Below, in pieces: positions 30,709 to 36,699 of a DNA stretch of 49,186 nucleotides (its first letter is position 1; the number at the start of each line of letters is the position of its first letter). The notes beneath the pieces were generated by a model, which saw nothing but the letters and a program-made list of their open reading frames with translations, had not been told where the DNA came from and did not search any database. The translations under genes were made by a program, and so were the position numbers. The DNA is taken from positions 1 through 49,186 of IMG/VR virus record IMGVR_UViG_3300009545_000213; one strand, given 5' to 3'. The stretch is from a virus.

Positions 30709-31299
30709 CTAAATCGTGCCCGGCGAAAAGCCGCGCTCAATATGATCCTCAAGTTCGGCCTGGTTCTTCGGCTTGAACGCAAGGCCGAAGTGTTGATAGT
30801 GATGCCTGAGCTGATCCTTCGTCGGCGCTGGTTCGAGTACAGTCTTGGCGCCGGGCTCTTCCCCAATTCCCCAATTCGGCCCGTATTTTTCCTTGAGGTG
30901 GTCTAGCGAAGGGCGCTCGCGTTCGACCTCGTCTCTGGCAGCAATCTGCTCCGCAATGCGCTTCTCACGGGCAACGCTCTCCAGTGTTAGCTCATGGGCT
31001 TCCATGCAGGCGTCGGTCACTTCCTTGACCGTTGGCAGCCAGCTTTTGGCGTGCGGCAGGCCCGTCACCGGATGGGTTACCCGCGTGATGATCTCCTCAG
31101 GATAACGCGCCAGCACAGCGGTAATGGCCGCCACGTAAGTCTCTGGATCGTTGGCGTCACCCGTGCGATAGCAGCCGAACAGGAGCCGCGCTCGCTTGGC
31201 CGCGTAGCTCGTCTGGGCCTCTTGGCGGGCCATCGAATCCGGCAATTTTTCGGGCGAGATCGTCAGCGGCTTGAATGATTGCGTTCTTGGGCTTCGCAT
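30709..31299 (-). CDS. Hypothetical replication-module protein, 196 aa
   Basis: The ATG at 31299 has GGGGA 6 nt upstream and overlaps the preceding replication gene by 143 nt in another frame; an ATG at 31233 would shorten the overlap to 77 nt. The central part (RARLLFGCYRTGDANDPETY, then ITAVLARYPEEIITRVTHPV and KSWLPTVKEVTDACM) resembles proteins next to replication initiators in rhizobial phages, and a helicase-loader-like role is possible but unproven. The C-terminus is charged. Confidence 0.68.
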   Translation of the reverse strand: MRSPRTQSFKPLTISPEKLPDSMARQEAQTSYAAKRARLLFGCYRTGDANDPETYVAAITAVLARYPEEIITRVTHPVTGLPHAKSWLPTVKEVTDACMEAHELTLESVAREKRIAEQIAARDEVERERPSLDHLKEKYGPNWGIGEEPGAKTVLEPAPTKDQLRHHYQHFGLAFKPKNQAELEDHIERGFSPGTI

Positions 31300-31990
31300 C
31301 CAAATTCCCCTTGGTTTTCAGGCTTGCAACTATCCATGCCGATGGATCGGCTACCCGGTTTCGGTCGGCGTCCTCGATCAATCCGAGAACCACAACGGCG
31401 TCATCTCCGGCTGCTTTCAGGCACTTCCCGACGAACGATCGACAGGCGTCAGGGCCTTTTCCGGTGATCCTGCCAAGCGTTTTCAGCCCTCGGTCGAACA
31501 GGTCCGCTCGCAGATCGACAGGCGCATCAGCGCCCGAAGCGTTAGCTTCGGAATTACCTTCCCCTCCACTACCTTCCCTTCCATTCCCTTCCGTCGCGAG
31601 CGTTCGTCGATCATTCGTCGAATGCTCGGCGATTTCAGGATTTATCTTTGGTTTAAAGCCATTTATGGGGGCTGGGCATTTCCCAGGCTGAGGCCGGTCG
31701 ATCTTCTGATGCTGCCATCCAGTGATCTGGATAAACTCCCTGCCATCCACTTCGTAGAGCAGGAGCAGACCGTTCGACGACAATTCGTCGATCAATCGTC
31801 GAATGCTCGAAGCGTCTACATCATCGCTCGGGAAAATCTGCGCCTTAATCGATTTGGCAGACAGCGGAAGCCGCCCCAGATCGTCCGCAAAATTCCACAT
31901 GCCGATGAACAGCAACCTGGCGAGCATGGAACATTCCATGACTCGTTCGTTAGTCCAAAATTCCGGCTTGATGGTGCGTATGCGGGCCAT
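31157..31990 (-). CDS. Phage replication initiator-like (replisome organiser) protein, 277 aa
   Basis: The N-terminal 100 residues (ARIRTIKPEFWTNERVMECS, then ARLLFIGMWNFADDLGRLPL, KIDRPQPGKCPAP) are the winged-helix region typical of phage replisome organisers in alphaproteobacterial phages. A Ser/Gly/Glu-rich linker follows, then a helical C-terminal domain (ITGKGPDACRSFVGKCLKAA). It would bind the phage origin and help load the host helicase. The start shares a base with the GapR-like stop (TGATG). Confidence 0.78.
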   Translation of the reverse strand: MARIRTIKPEFWTNERVMECSMLARLLFIGMWNFADDLGRLPLSAKSIKAQIFPSDDVDASSIRRLIDELSSNGLLLLYEVDGREFIQITGWQHQKIDRPQPGKCPAPINGFKPKINPEIAEHSTNDRRTLATEGNGREGSGGEGNSEANASGADAPVDLRADLFDRGLKTLGRITGKGPDACRSFVGKCLKAAGDDAVVVLGLIEDADRNRVADPSAWIVASLKTKGNLDAKPKNAIIQAADDLARKIAGFDGPPRGPDELRGQASAAPVRLLSHG

Positions 31991-32238
31991 CAAATCATCC
32001 CCAAGGCCTGCATATAGCTCTCTAGCACGGCTTCCTGATGGGCACGCTCGTTTGCATCCTGCTTGCGCATCCGTACAATGGTGCGCAGCGCCTTCACGTC
32101 GAATCCAACACCCTTGGCTTCCGCGAAAACGTCCTTGATCTCGTCGGAGATCGCTTTCTTGTCCTCCTCAAGCTTCTCGACGCGCACAACAATCGAACGC
32201 AACTGTTCCTTGCTGTTGTGTCCTGGTTCTTCAGTCAT
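31990..32238 (-). CDS. gapR: GapR-like (DUF2312) nucleoid-associated protein, 82 aa
   Basis: The product (EQLRSIVVRVEKLEEDKKAI, then VFAEAKGVGFDVKALRTIVR, then MRKQDANERAHQEAVLESYM and ending QALGMI) has the complete DUF2312/GapR pattern. GapR of Caulobacter binds overtwisted AT-rich DNA ahead of replication forks and helps topoisomerases and chromosome replication. It is full length, with the coiled coil and basic C-terminal helices intact. It is coupled on both sides (ATGA with the upstream gene, TGATG with the replication initiator). A role in phage replication or interference with host chromosome dynamics is inferred. Confidence 0.88.
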   Translation of the reverse strand: MTEEPGHNSKEQLRSIVVRVEKLEEDKKAISDEIKDVFAEAKGVGFDVKALRTIVRMRKQDANERAHQEAVLESYMQALGMI

Positions 32239-32477
32239 CCTGCCCTCGCTAGATCGTCGCCTAAATCAGCCACGGCGCTCTGTAGCTCCGGGTCTGCTGT
32301 TTCACGTGGAGCATCGAGCCTGAACGGTTTGACCGGCTCTCCCTTGCCCTTCCATTCCATCAATGCCGACCAGAAGCCGTGATGCGTGCCGTCCAATGCG
32401 TTATGACGTATCCAGCCGATGCGCTCGTAGGCGGCTACCTCATGCAAACGGACAAAGTGAAAGATTTTCTCGGTCAT
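32235..32477 (-). CDS. Hypothetical phage protein, 80 aa
   Basis: Product MTEKIFHFVRLHEVAAYERI with WIRHNALDGTHHGFWSALME: a small soluble protein of the kind often seen in rhizobial prophages without known function. Both ends overlap neighbours by ATGA, so it is translated in a chain with the MT-A70 and GapR-like genes. Confidence 0.7.
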   Translation of the reverse strand: MTEKIFHFVRLHEVAAYERIGWIRHNALDGTHHGFWSALMEWKGKGEPVKPFRLDAPRETADPELQSAVADLGDDLARAG

Positions 32478-33094
32478 TCGGCGGCCTCCGCGAATTTACC
32501 GACTTCGTTACCCCAGCAATCCCAATTAGGACGACGCTGGCGGGCGAAAAGCTCGACGTAGGGGCCGGCTACAAGGCGCTCGATGCGCTCATGGATGCCG
32601 TCGGGCTTGCGGCTGTGCTCACGACGCGGCGCGATGATGCCTTGGCGAACGTCGGCGTTGAGGCGTTTTGGCTTGCCTCGTGTGCCGAGAAGACAGTATT
32701 CAGAGTTCGCCCGCGTCCAATAGCCGAGAAGCATGTCGGCCGTGATTTCGGCATCAAACATTTCGATCTGAGTGCCGTTAGCCTTCATCCAAGAGAAAGC
32801 GCAGGTTTTGTATTCAAAGCCCCAGGATTGAAGAACATCCATTGCCTCGGGAAGCATCGGCCATGTGCCCCACATGAAAAGCACACAGTCTTTCGCAGCG
32901 AGCCCAGCAACCGGAAGATCGCGAATGTTCGTGGCTTCCATTGTGTCGTAATGCTTATCAACCGAGCGGTCGCCAATAGGCGCAAGGCTCGCGCGTTGGC
33001 CGCGATACCTGCCCCAGCTTTCCCAGCGCCACGGCGGATCAGCCAAGATCGCCCCGTATTTCCCGCGTTCGAGTCCGTCGAAAATCCAACTCAC
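32474..33094 (-). CDS. MT-A70 family N6-adenine DNA methyltransferase
   Basis: The GTG at 33094 overlaps the GcrA-like stop (GTGA) and gives 206 aa. DPPW at residues 19-22 is the catalytic motif, and VLFMWGTWPMLPEAMDVLQS, the later SEYCLLGTRGKP and HSRKPDGIHERIERL complete the MT-A70 fold. It transfers a methyl group from SAM to adenine; the site recognised cannot be read from the sequence. It is not the CcrM family by sequence, but its direct coupling to a GcrA homologue, whose host counterpart senses adenine methylation, is striking. The start may instead lie upstream in the same frame. Confidence 0.9.
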   Translation of the reverse strand: MSWIFDGLERGKYGAILADPPWRWESWGRYRGQRASLAPIGDRSVDKHYDTMEATNIRDLPVAGLAAKDCVLFMWGTWPMLPEAMDVLQSWGFEYKTCAFSWMKANGTQIEMFDAEITADMLLGYWTRANSEYCLLGTRGKPKRLNADVRQGIIAPRREHSRKPDGIHERIERLVAGPYVELFARQRRPNWDCWGNEVGKFAEAAE

Positions 33095-33558
33095 ACCGCC
33101 GCCCTTTCCGCTGCCGTTCCCGTCCCTACCGACAACTGAAAATGCGCAAGGCAATAAGAACCGATCATCTTTGAATGACCGCAGAAGGTGATGTTTGGGC
33201 TTTCCGAATATGGCCAGCGGCAGTGATGTGGTTCGAGATCAAGTAATGTCAGGTGAAGCGGCTCGATCTCGGCGCAGCGCATTTCGATAGCAGCGCGCGG
33301 TGTGGGAGACGGGTCGGCCCGGCGCGCATATCGTGGCATGGACGGATCGCGCTTTGGTCTCGGGGGATTTTTCGGAGGCGGCTTGGCAGGGCTCGCAATC
33401 CCTATTCGCTTGGCACGGCCGATCACGGCATTACGTGAGAACGTAGTACCGAACTTCGCGTTAAGCTGTTCCGTGACCTCGCGATAGGTGAGGCCTTCCA
33501 GAACAAAATCATTGATCGCCTCGGACTGCTCGTCCGTCCAAACTACGAAATGCCCCAT
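33091..33558 (-). CDS. gcrA: GcrA-like cell-cycle regulator, 155 aa
   Basis: Residues 5-54 (VVWTDEQSEAINDFVLEGLT, then SRNAVIGRAKRIGI) match the GcrA N-terminal helix-turn-helix. After a Pro/Arg-rich linker, residues 114-142 carry the conserved C-terminal motif CRWPYSES, FCGHSK, SYCLAHFQ with Cys114, Cys127, Cys137 and His140 placed as in GcrA. Host GcrA binds sigma-70 and methylated GANTC promoters to activate S-phase genes. Both domains are intact, so the phage protein could redirect sigma-70 or compete with host GcrA; that is an inference. Its stop overlaps the methyltransferase start. Confidence 0.9.
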   Translation of the reverse strand: MGHFVVWTDEQSEAINDFVLEGLTYREVTEQLNAKFGTTFSRNAVIGRAKRIGIASPAKPPPKNPPRPKRDPSMPRYARRADPSPTPRAAIEMRCAEIEPLHLTLLDLEPHHCRWPYSESPNITFCGHSKMIGSYCLAHFQLSVGTGTAAERAAV

Positions 33559-33572
33559 CCCCCGATGCCCCT

Positions 33573-33755
33573 TTAGTTCGCGCGGTTCTCTCGTTTAAGC
33601 TGCAACAACATCTTGTCCTGTAGCAGGGCTTCCAATTCGCCCCTGCGGATGCTGCGGGGCTTCTCCTGCTCCACCAGGGAGCGCAGGTGTGCTATCTGAT
33701 GCGGTAGCGCCAGCCGCTTGATCCGCCGGCAAACAAGATGGCTTGGAGTGGCCAT
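33573..33755 (-). CDS. Small basic phage protein, 60 aa, overlapping the DnaA-like gene
   Basis: The ATG at 33755 follows a strong ribosome-binding site (GGGAGG, 6-nt spacing). The product is a charged helix (LPHQIAHLRSLVEQEKPRSI, then GELEALLQDKMLLQLKREN). It overlaps the last 161 nt of the DnaA-like gene in a different frame, where that protein is low-complexity, so the overlap may have arisen by extension of the other frame. Function unknown. Confidence 0.65.
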   Translation of the reverse strand: MATPSHLVCRRIKRLALPHQIAHLRSLVEQEKPRSIRRGELEALLQDKMLLQLKRENRAN

Positions 33756-34233
33756 CAATTTCCTCCCGAAGCTCAAGGACGATTTTTGCAACGGCAGGAT
33801 CTGTCTCGATCAGACGTTCGATCTTGCGCGTGGCACTGATCACGGACGTATGGTCGAAACCGCCGAATTTTCTGCCAATTTGGGGAAACGAGAATGTCGT
33901 TAGCTCGCGGCAGAGATACATTGCGATCTGCCGAGGAAGCACGACGCCCTTGAGGCGACGGCGCTGGAGCAATCGGAGTCGATTGATCTTGTATTTCTCG
34001 CAAACCGCGTCTTGCACGGTTCGGATCAGTGGCTTGTGAGGCTCCTCAATCGTGAACCAAACAGGCTTCGCGGGCGGGAGTTTTGGCTCTTCGATGATAA
34101 CCCGAAGCGGAGCAACGACGACCGTCGGTTTTGGTGTCATCTTTCGGCCATGATACCGCTTCAGCCGGCGCAAAAGGCCATCGCTGCTAACGACATTGAA
34201 CTTGTGATGCGTTTCGGAATAGTCGAGCATCAT
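33595..34233 (-). CDS. DnaA domain IV-like DNA-binding protein, 212 aa
   Basis: Residues 70-155 resemble the C-terminal DNA-binding domain of DnaA: VVLPRQIAMYLCRELTTFSF, then PQIGRKFGGFDHTSVISATR, including the DHTSV signature that contacts the DnaA box. There is no AAA+ ATPase domain, so it can bind DnaA boxes but not open DNA. The first 65 residues are basic and Pro-rich. The last 55 are low-complexity and overlap another gene. It may mark the phage origin or compete with host DnaA. Confidence 0.85.
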   Translation of the reverse strand: MMLDYSETHHKFNVVSSDGLLRRLKRYHGRKMTPKPTVVVAPLRVIIEEPKLPPAKPVWFTIEEPHKPLIRTVQDAVCEKYKINRLRLLQRRRLKGVVLPRQIAMYLCRELTTFSFPQIGRKFGGFDHTSVISATRKIERLIETDPAVAKIVLELREEIDGHSKPSCLPADQAAGATASDSTPALPGGAGEAPQHPQGRIGSPATGQDVVAA

Positions 34234-34997
34234 CCAAACCTCTGATCCATGAGAGGGCTTTCAATGCGGGCGAGAAATTCTTGGCGCGCGTCTAATGACG
34301 CCTTGTTCCAGGCATTCATGAGCGCAGCAACTTGGCTTTCCAGCGCCTCAATGCCGCTGATGGGGTCTTTGGCAAGCTTCACGACGCGCGGGGCCGTGTG
34401 ACGGCGATGAATCTCAGCCACTTGCTCTGCGACCGTTGGCTTTGCAGCGGCGTCAAGCAAGGCAGAGCGGTTGTCGTCAAGACCAACCTCACGTGCGGCC
34501 GTCTTAGCTTCTTCCGAGAGAGACGCTACCTGCATGGCGCGGTGCGCATCATGACGATGAATGCCTAACTCGCGCGCCGCATTCTCGACGCCAGAAGGAC
34601 GGCCGCCGCGTCCATCCGACCTCAAACTCCCATTTTGGGAGTTTGATATCCGCTCGGTAAGCTTGATCCATTCCGCGATCTGCTCATCACGCTCCAGCTT
34701 GGTTAGATCGGAACGATGTAAATTCTCAGCGATCTCCCAAAGTCGCGCTTCGTCATTTGTCATTTTCACGATAATGGCCGGGATATGCTCCCGACCGAGT
34801 TTTTCAAAAGCCGCCATCCGATGGCGACCTGCAACGAGCGAATACCGCTCGCCGCGCTCGCGAACCGTGATCGGATGACGAAGGCCGATTTGCTCAATGC
34901 TCTCGGCAAGCCGGCGGACGGCAGCGGCGTTCAGCTCCCGACGCCCCTCCGGGATATCGATATCTGTGATGGTGATCGGGAGATGAATGTCGCGCAT
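34230..34997 (-). CDS. ParB-like protein, 255 aa
   Basis: The N-terminal ParB domain is clear: PITITDIDIPEGRRELNAAA, the box II segment YSLVAGRHRMAAFEKLG (GRHR at 57-60) and ENLHRSDLTKLERDEQIAEW. A helix-turn-helix region follows (AARELGIHRHDAHRAMQVAS). No ParA gene is adjacent, so this is probably not a partition pair; a role in phage replication or regulation is more likely. It lies one base from the DGQHR gene and overlaps the DnaA-like start. Confidence 0.87.
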   Translation of the reverse strand: MRDIHLPITITDIDIPEGRRELNAAAVRRLAESIEQIGLRHPITVRERGERYSLVAGRHRMAAFEKLGREHIPAIIVKMTNDEARLWEIAENLHRSDLTKLERDEQIAEWIKLTERISNSQNGSLRSDGRGGRPSGVENAARELGIHRHDAHRAMQVASLSEEAKTAAREVGLDDNRSALLDAAAKPTVAEQVAEIHRRHTAPRVVKLAKDPISGIEALESQVAALMNAWNKASLDARQEFLARIESPLMDQRFG

Positions 34998-35984: not shown

Positions 35985-36359
35985 TCAGGAGCGATCCAGA
36001 CCGCGAAGTGCGCGAGCTGCATCGATAAGCGAAGTAATGTCATCGCAGTGAAAATCCGAATCCTTGGCATTGAGTGATCCCGCGATGCTTTCGAATTGTG
36101 CCGCTAACTGTTGCGCTTCCTGTCTTGCTCGTTCCGCCGCATTCACTATTTCCGATGCCACAGTCCATTTCGGATCAGTCGTTTCGCCGTAGTACATGGC
36201 TTTGCACTGACGAAAGGTAATGCCGGCTTTGCGAGCCGCGCGAGCCAACCAGCTTTCGCGCGTATCGCCGGGGTACATAGGTCCCGCAATCGCGGTGATC
36301 TCGGCTTGCCAATTCATTACGCGGCTCACTTTCCGAACTCCGTCTGACTTTTCCGACAT
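35985..36359 (-). CDS. Hypothetical early protein, possible helix-turn-helix, 124 aa
   Basis: The ATG at 36359 follows AAGGA with 7-nt spacing; the frame is open to 36470. Residues 30-60 (TRESWLARAARKAGITFRQC) look like a helix-turn-helix, followed by a long helix (VNAAERARQEAQQLAAQFES). It lies in the leftward early operon after two small membrane-protein genes. It is probably DNA-binding, but no family is certain. Confidence 0.6.
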   Translation of the reverse strand: MSEKSDGVRKVSRVMNWQAEITAIAGPMYPGDTRESWLARAARKAGITFRQCKAMYYGETTDPKWTVASEIVNAAERARQEAQQLAAQFESIAGSLNAKDSDFHCDDITSLIDAARALRGLDRS

Positions 36360-36462
36360 TTCCGAATCCTTCCATGTTTGATTGCTCGACATGAAAGGCA
36401 GCACGCACGACAACGATAATGACGACACTTGGCAGACTCTCTCCGCAGCAACGGAGCGAGCG

Positions 36463-36699
36463 TTAGGCAAACCAGGCTTTCAGAACGGCACCAGCAGTCC
36501 CGAGAAACACAGCGATAAGGCTGATGAAGATGGCGAGAGCGACAAGAACGACCGTGTCGCGGAAGGCATCCGAAATATCGAGAGATTCGAGGCGCGGTAT
36601 AGACGCGGCCGGTAGTGGATGAAGTTCAGGCGAAGCCCCGCGCCTGTCAAAGCGGCTCGGTTGATCGAATGCCCCCTCGATTGGCCGAGCCGTGGTCAT
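36463..36699 (-). CDS. Small membrane protein, 78 aa
   Basis: A Pro/Arg-rich soluble N-terminus (residues 1-45) precedes one transmembrane segment (VVLVALAIFISLIAVFLGTA). The start overlaps the stop of the preceding 49-aa membrane protein (ATGA). Its place next to the Cro-like gene suggests an early or immunity-related membrane role such as superinfection exclusion, but this is inferred. Open frames also exist on the plus strand here, with no ribosome-binding support. Confidence 0.55.
   Translation of the reverse strand: MTTARPIEGAFDQPSRFDRRGASPELHPLPAASIPRLESLDISDAFRDTVVLVALAIFISLIAVFLGTAGAVLKAWFA

What the first reader, a model, noticed from the sequence alone, without database searches (positions are those of the whole stretch)
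33595..34233. DnaA domain IV without the ATPase
The DHTSV signature and flanking helices of DnaA domain IV are present, but no AAA+ domain exists. Such a protein could occupy host DnaA boxes and block chromosome initiation, or mark the phage origin and recruit host DnaA.
Basis: partly seen in the sequence, partly recalled or inferred. Interest (0 to 1): 0.6.

Follow-up and report, generated by a model that had tools for sequence, protein, structure and literature searches.

The report
Phage DnaA DNA-binding domain, no ATPase
A temperate phage of alphaproteobacteria makes only the DNA-gripping end of the bacterial replication starter DnaA; such stripped-down proteins turn out to be common and already annotated in phages but untested, and here the gene sits in one operon with copies of other host cell-cycle and chromosome proteins, which suggests that the phage tampers with the host's replication timing.

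Summary
ORF 33595-34233(-), 212 aa, holds a complete DnaA domain IV (Bac_DnaA_C E=1.2e-24, residues 71-138; AlphaFold model matches E. coli domain IV structure 1J1V at 0.8 Å) and no AAA+ or domain I. It is not unique: IMG/VR gave 294 loci with relatives, most of those examined short, and databases already label many "DnaA C-terminal". DNA-contact residues are nearly invariant; domain IV is under strong purifying selection. New details: an N-terminal helix, a proline-rich linker and a recurring W-[FYL]-x-[IV] motif before domain IV, absent from full-length phage DnaAs; the last ~50 residues read through a small conserved overlapping gene. The operon also encodes GcrA, GapR, an MT-A70 methyltransferase, a ParB-like protein and the phage initiator; GcrA lies beside this gene in 16 of 22 loci holding both. 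The phage has no DnaA boxes in 49 kb, and 11-bp-spaced iterons lie inside its own initiator gene, so marking the phage origin through DnaA boxes is unlikely. Most likely it acts on host DnaA boxes as a non-initiating competitor or adaptor; this is inference, not shown. Known kind, unknown function.

The parts
33595..34233 (-). DnaA domain-IV-only protein, 212 aa ORF (focal gene); ATG overlaps the stop of the upstream ParB-like gene (34230), so probably translationally coupled
33820..34023 (-). DnaA domain IV (Bac_DnaA_C), residues 71-138; DHTSV signature at 33841-33855
   Evidence: dN 0.005, dS 0.14 against L002
34042..34059 (-). WFTIEE motif (residues 59-64) just before domain IV; W-[FYLW]-x-[IVLM] motif recurrent in the family
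   Evidence: 29 of 83 domain-IV-only proteins against 2.5 expected, 0 of 15 long/full-length phage DnaAs; W59 kept in 34 of 36 rows occupied at that column
34150..34221 (-). N-terminal helix, residues 5-28 (predicted); followed by proline-rich linker
   Evidence: dN 0.12, dS 0.33 over residues 1-66
33598..33756 (-). C-terminal tail, residues 160-212: probable read-through over the next gene, not conserved as protein
33573..33791 (-). Small conserved gene overlapping the 3' end of the focal gene (72-aa ORF, probable start ATG at 33752); function unknown, found near the domain-IV gene in 22 loci
   Evidence: no Pfam or NCBIfam match
33091..33558 (-). GcrA-family protein, next gene downstream
   Evidence: PF07750 E=7.3e-28; weak to the GcrA equivalog NF050816 (53 bits, cut-off 280)
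32474..33154 (-). MT-A70 adenine methyltransferase (DPPW motif)
   Evidence: PF05063 E=2.7e-27; phrog_359 E=3.4e-74
31990..32238 (-). GapR nucleoid protein (DUF2312)
   Evidence: PF10073 E=6.5e-32
31157..31993 (-). Phage replication initiation protein (phrog_1408)
   Evidence: E=7.1e-36
31603..31802 (.). Candidate phage origin: TTCGTCGA-type iterons (some with one mismatch) at 31603, 31614 and 31773, 31784, 31795, 11 bp apart, inside the initiator gene
   Evidence: three 11-bp pairs; 28 of 30 shuffles had none, two had one
34230..34997 (-). ParB_N protein (ParB/Noc-like), directly upstream
   Evidence: PF02195 E=2e-12; TIGR04285 Noc 72 bits, below cut-off

Best explanation
It is a real, conserved phage protein: a DnaA-box-binding domain (DnaA domain IV) carried on a short N-terminal region made of a helix, a proline-rich linker and a W-F-x-I contact motif. 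It is made in the replication operon of a temperate podovirus of an alphaproteobacterium, probably translationally coupled to a ParB-like protein. Proposed mechanism: it binds the host's DnaA boxes at oriC and at DnaA-controlled promoters. Having no AAA+ domain it cannot oligomerise or open DNA, so it holds back or retimes host initiation and the DnaA regulon, while the N-terminal motif brings in a partner (phage or host, unknown). Together with phage GcrA, GapR and the methyltransferase it would shift the host towards a replication state that suits the phage, whose own origin uses iterons in its initiator gene. Shown: domain, predicted fold, conserved contact residues, selection, gene neighbourhood, lack of DnaA boxes in the phage. 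Inferred: binding to host DnaA boxes, effect on host initiation, partner recruitment.
For: Domain and fold. Across 87 phage domains R399 is kept in 94%, R407 100%, Q408 80%, H434 99%, T435 86% (these positions were not fixed by the search pattern, unlike 425-433). Purifying selection on domain IV: dN 0.005, dS 0.14. No DnaA boxes in the phage and no clusters in relatives. Own origin candidate of a different sequence. Co-encoded GcrA, GapR, MTase and ParB-like protein in one run of genes; GapR in 26 of 36 and GcrA in 7 of 36 related phage records over cut-off; GcrA within 500 bases in 16 of 22 loci with both, all same strand, including a Bradyrhizobium elkanii 67-kb plasmid. Recurrent W-F-x-I motif.
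Against: No experiment shows DNA binding or any effect on the host. R432 is F and T436 is S in the window, so specificity may have drifted. The gene sits close to the phage initiator, which fits a direct role in phage replication at least as well. GapR is common in alphaproteobacterial phages anyway (147 records), and in a sample picked by GapR alone the DnaA-C/GcrA association was not significant (5 of 15 against 9 of 64, Fisher p=0.13). Full-length DnaAs in other phages of this group suggest a replication role for the slot.
Confidence: 0.4

Rival explanations
1. Phage replication accessory: it binds a site on phage DNA (not a canonical DnaA box) and its N-terminal motif delivers the phage initiator or the host helicase to the phage origin, a split version of a DnaA-type initiator.
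For: The gene lies in the replication operon a few genes from the initiator; other phages of the group carry full-length DnaA with GapR upstream and the same MTase directly downstream; it lies beside replication proteins in other phages; Bacillus phage Pascal's DnaA-like protein was annotated as a replication initiator (PMC4319499).
Against: No DnaA boxes in the window and no clusters near the gene in 82 loci; contact residues are those for DnaA boxes; iterons in the initiator gene look sufficient for the initiator itself.
Confidence: 0.3
2. Transcription regulator: a domain-IV repressor or activator of phage or host promoters, in the way DnaA itself regulates genes, perhaps working with the adjacent GcrA.
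For: Domain IV alone is a sufficient DNA-binding unit; adjacency to GcrA, a sigma-70 cofactor family, in 16 of 22 loci with both; GcrA in phages was proposed to change host expression (PMC3556154).
Against: No operator-like DnaA box in the phage; nothing shows contact with RNA polymerase.
Confidence: 0.2
3. Decayed remnant of a captured DnaA with no present function.
For: Loss of the AAA+ domain; full-length and partly degenerate phage DnaAs exist (L072).
Against: dN/dS about 0.04 in domain IV, near-invariant contact residues over a diverse family, recurring N-terminal motif.
Confidence: 0.05

Closest known systems
Phage proteins annotated 'Chromosomal replication initiator, DnaA C-terminal' (PF08299 only) in uncultured Caudovirales
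   Same: Same predicted fold, same domain-IV-only size (about 90-200 aa), in phages
   Different: Those entries carry only an annotation; the N-terminal W-F-x-I motif and the GcrA/GapR neighbourhood were not found described in the papers searched
Bacterial DnaA (TIGR00362), domain IV
   Same: Domain IV with the DNA-contact residues, 43% identity to E. coli over the structural match
   Different: No domain I and no AAA+ domain III, so no ATP binding, oligomerisation or DNA opening; 97 bits against an equivalog cut-off of 344
NF004687 / PRK06030 hypothetical protein (NCBIfam)
   Same: Short protein (140-position model) matched over the domain-IV part
   Different: Only 17.7 bits, cut-off 181: not a member
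Rickettsia felis plasmid DnaA-like proteins (pRF05, pRF19, pRF20)
   Same: DnaA-like proteins on a mobile replicon of an alphaproteobacterium, proposed for plasmid initiation (PMC1800911)
   Different: Plasmid, not phage; domain content not compared here
phiCbK-like phage GcrA (gp222)
   Same: Phage GcrA homologue proposed to alter host replicative state (PMC3556154)
   Different: Large lytic Caulobacter phage; the passages read do not describe a domain-IV protein beside it
Sinorhizobium phage phiLM21 GANTC methyltransferases
   Same: Phage adenine MTase beside the replication genes (PMC5537653)
   Different: Those have NPPW/F/Y motifs and GANTC specificity; the window MTase is MT-A70 with DPPW and its specificity is unknown

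Membership tests
DnaA domain IV (PF08299 Bac_DnaA_C) | Full-length match to the domain profile above the curated cut-off | tested here: met
   86.5 bits against 31.5, positions 2-69 of 69
DnaA domain IV (PF08299 Bac_DnaA_C) | Domain IV fold | tested here: met
   AlphaFold model against 1J1V: TM 0.95 by target, 0.8 Å
DnaA domain IV (PF08299 Bac_DnaA_C) | DNA-contact residues R399, R407, Q408, D433, H434, T435, T436 | tested here: met
   All kept except T436 to S; R432 is F
DnaA domain IV (PF08299 Bac_DnaA_C) | Binding to TTWTNCACA boxes | not testable with these tools
   Needs gel shift or ChIP
DnaA initiator (full protein) | AAA+ ATPase domain (PF00308) | tested here: not met
   No match; the part before domain IV is about 70 residues
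DnaA initiator (full protein) | Domain I (PF11638 DnaA_N) | tested here: not met
   No match; only one predicted helix at the N-terminus
Phage 'DnaA C-terminal' proteins | Short phage protein with domain IV only | tested here: met
   36 BFVD viral models at E<=0.001, many named DnaA C-terminal; 294 IMG/VR loci with relatives
Phage origin marked by DnaA boxes | Cluster of DnaA boxes on the phage genome | tested here: not met
   0 in the window; no clusters in related phages

The most novel reading that the evidence does not exclude
Alphaproteobacterial phages carry a compact kit that copies the DNA-binding parts of the host's cell-cycle machinery (DnaA domain IV, GcrA, GapR, an adenine methyltransferase, a ParB/Noc-like protein) in one operon, with a DnaA-box binder tethered to a partner through a W-F-x-I motif, to take over the timing of host chromosome initiation during infection.
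Probability: 0.2. Interest if true: 0.75.

Novelty: new member of a known kind. Interest (0 to 1): 0.42.

Why it matters
DnaA controls when bacteria start copying their chromosome. A widespread phage family that keeps only its DNA-binding end would be a natural dominant competitor and a ready tool for switching initiation or the DnaA regulon without touching the ATPase. Its repeated place next to GcrA and near GapR gives a directly testable idea: that phages of alphaproteobacteria steer the host cell cycle. The papers searched report single parts (GcrA in phiCbK, GANTC methyltransferases in Sinorhizobium phages) but not the DnaA part or the set.

Tried and rejected
Full-length DnaA at the site: rejected, no AAA+ or domain I. 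Phage origin by DnaA boxes: no boxes in the window, no enrichment specific to domain-IV loci (28 TTWTNCACA against 19 expected in 933 kb; GapR-only controls 27 against 11 in 639 kb), none clustered in whole records. C-terminal tail as a functional part: rejected. GapR as specific evidence for a kit: weakened, GapR is common in these phages. Specific DnaA-C/GcrA co-occurrence in a GapR-selected sample: not significant. Tree of domain IV: groups the window with L002 and L012, but 83 columns are too few to say whether domain-IV-only proteins came from phage full-length DnaA or from hosts. Some 'phage' hits (L008, L009, L010; Staphylococcus, Enterococcus, Salmonella, Campylobacter, Listeria records) look like bacterial dnaA genes in mislabelled or contaminated records; L008-L010 were left out. 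GANTC in the phage is the most depleted such palindrome (84 against 220, 0.38), but related phages show the same, so it marks the host group, not this gene; GANTC is not concentrated between genes. An alignment of distant GcrA proteins could not be used for a collection scan. Host genomes could not be surveyed: the held genome search does not draw relatives for virus records, and the one genome-contig scan returned only a full-length-sized DnaA ORF in an Oscillospiraceae bin.

Full report
Observation. The ORF at 33595-34233 on the minus strand is open from an ATG and encodes 212 residues. Pfam finds a single domain, Bac_DnaA_C, over residues 71-138 (E=1.2e-24, profile 2-69 of 69). The best solved relatives by sequence are E. 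coli DnaA domain IV (1J1V), DnaA of 8btg and the DnaA DNA-binding domain 3pvp. An AlphaFold model from 44 sequences (the window and 43 phage relatives) has pLDDT 95-98 over domain IV and matches 1J1V with rmsd 0.8 Å and TM-score 0.95 by target length. No AAA+ or DnaA_N domain is present.

Anatomy. Residues 5-28 form a predicted helix, residues ~30-58 are proline-rich, and residues 59-64 read WFTIEE. A motif W-[FYLW]-x-[IVLM] lies in the 45 residues before domain IV in 29 of 83 domain-IV-only phage proteins (mean 2.5 after shuffling, maximum 7 in 500) and in none of the 15 long or full-length phage DnaAs; in an alignment of 48 such proteins the W is kept in 34 of the 36 rows occupied at that column. 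The sequences are related, so the count is not of independent events, but the rest of the N-terminus is strongly diverged. This looks like a protein-contact peptide; the partner is unknown. Residues ~160-212 have no counterpart in most relatives. They lie over a small conserved ORF (33573-33791) that directly follows the domain-IV gene in several phages. Comparison with L002 gives codon-position changes of 9/5/4 in the tail frame and 9/8/19 in the small ORF's frame, so the tail is most likely a read-through product and the small ORF a real gene. Domain IV itself has dN 0.005 and dS 0.14.

DNA recognition. Across 87 phage domains the residues that contact the DnaA box in E. coli (numbering and roles from my knowledge of 1J1V) are nearly invariant: R399 94%, R407 100%, Q408 80%, H434 99%, T435 86%. 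The loci were fetched with a pattern covering residues 425-433, so D433 and its neighbours cannot count as independent evidence. The window protein keeps all of these, has S at 436 and F at 432.

How common it is. A profile scan of IMG/VR matched 373 stretches, 294 of them coding for relatives; the best 80 were kept. A structure search of viral proteins returns dozens of 'Chromosomal replication initiator, DnaA C-terminal' entries. Named phages with it include Bradyrhizobium phages ppBjS10J-1 and ppBeUSDA76-2 and Rhizobium phage RHph_N28_2. Of ten long relatives scanned with Pfam, seven have the DnaA ATPase and domain IV clearly (L025, L032, L033, L047, L050, L063, L076), L072 has a weakened ATPase match, and L016 and L084 have domain IV only. 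L031, L062 and L076 form one clade and have GapR upstream and the same methyltransferase overlapping or next downstream. In a sample picked by GapR only, 16 of 80 loci had a domain-IV gene and all were short.

Neighbourhood. The gene's start overlaps the stop of a ParB_N gene. Downstream on the same strand come the small ORF, a GcrA-family protein (E=7.3e-28), an MT-A70 methyltransferase, GapR (E=6.5e-32) and the phage replication initiator. GcrA, GapR, DnaA and adenine methylation are host cell-cycle or nucleoid factors in alphaproteobacteria (general knowledge). Where both a DnaA-C gene and a GcrA gene lie within the fetched stretch, they are within 500 bases of each other in 16 of 22 loci, always on the same strand; Pfam confirms most of the GcrA calls checked, with L035 just under the cut-off and L103 a weak match in an HNH protein. 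A B. elkanii 67-kb plasmid has the same neighbours. GapR is present over cut-off in 26 of 36 and GcrA in 7 of 36 related phage records. Two cautions: GapR is common in alphaproteobacterial phages in general, and in the GapR-picked sample the association of GcrA with DnaA-C is not significant (p=0.13).

Phage context. The record is a temperate podovirus-like genome with terminase, head-tail adaptor, S24-type repressor, integrase and RecT/Gam recombination genes; among the best terminase matches are Caulobacter SR18-like and Bordetella BPP-1-like phages. There is no TTWTNCACA site in 49,186 bases, though only about 0.9 is expected, and related phage records have scattered single sites, never clusters. 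Inside the initiator gene five TTCGTCGA-type repeats (some with one mismatch) lie in two groups with 11-bp spacing; of 30 shuffled genomes 28 had no such pair and two had one. This is the likely origin, by analogy with lambda-type initiators (inference).

Mechanism. The best-supported reading is a DnaA-box binder that cannot initiate and acts on host sites, holding back or retiming host initiation or the DnaA regulon, with a partner recruited through the N-terminal motif. The DNA-binding step is inferred from conserved residues and fold; the effect on the host is inferred from the absence of targets in the phage and from the company it keeps. The main rival is a helper of phage replication.

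Known or new. Short phage DnaA C-terminal proteins are already in the databases and one phage DnaA-like protein was annotated as an initiator (PMC4319499). No functional study of a domain-IV-only phage protein was found in the searches made, which cover open-licence papers only. Phage GcrA (PMC3556154) and phage GANTC methyltransferases (PMC5537653) are known separately. So this is a new member of a known, uncharacterised kind, with a neighbourhood and a motif that make it worth testing.

Noticed in passing
window 30709-34997 (-); L091 6944-12968: Run of genes combining ParB-like, DnaA domain IV, GcrA, MT-A70 methyltransferase, GapR and phage initiator; a similar set (domain-IV protein, GcrA, DNA methyltransferase, DUF2312/GapR) lies on Bradyrhizobium elkanii plasmid pUSDA31-2.
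   Followed up: partly
L025, L032, L033, L047, L050, L063, L076 (also L031, L062): IMG/VR phage records with long or full-length DnaA (ATPase plus domain IV, several also with DnaA_N), some followed by the same methyltransferase with GapR upstream.
   Followed up: partly
window 1-49186: GANTC, the CcrM/GcrA motif, is the most depleted palindrome of its form (84 against 220 expected); related phages show the same depletion (ratio 0.35-0.43).
   Followed up: yes
window about 31553-31592 (in the initiator gene) and the initiator genes of L002, L013, L060: Purine-rich 5-bp tandem repeats (GGAAG/GGGAA) in the middle of the phage initiator gene, recurring in divergent relatives; possibly part of the origin.
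   Followed up: no
window 33573-33791 (-): Conserved small ORF of unknown function overlapping the end of the domain-IV gene, present in 22 related loci.
   Followed up: partly
window 35985-36470 (-): Unknown, possibly HTH-type protein found near the domain-IV gene in 34 loci.
   Followed up: no
L008, L009, L010 and several INPHARED records named Staphylococcus, Enterococcus, Salmonella, Campylobacter or Listeria phage: These 'phage' records appear to contain bacterial dnaA genes (L008 and L010 with DnaA-box clusters beside them), so they are probably contaminated or mislabelled.
   Followed up: partly
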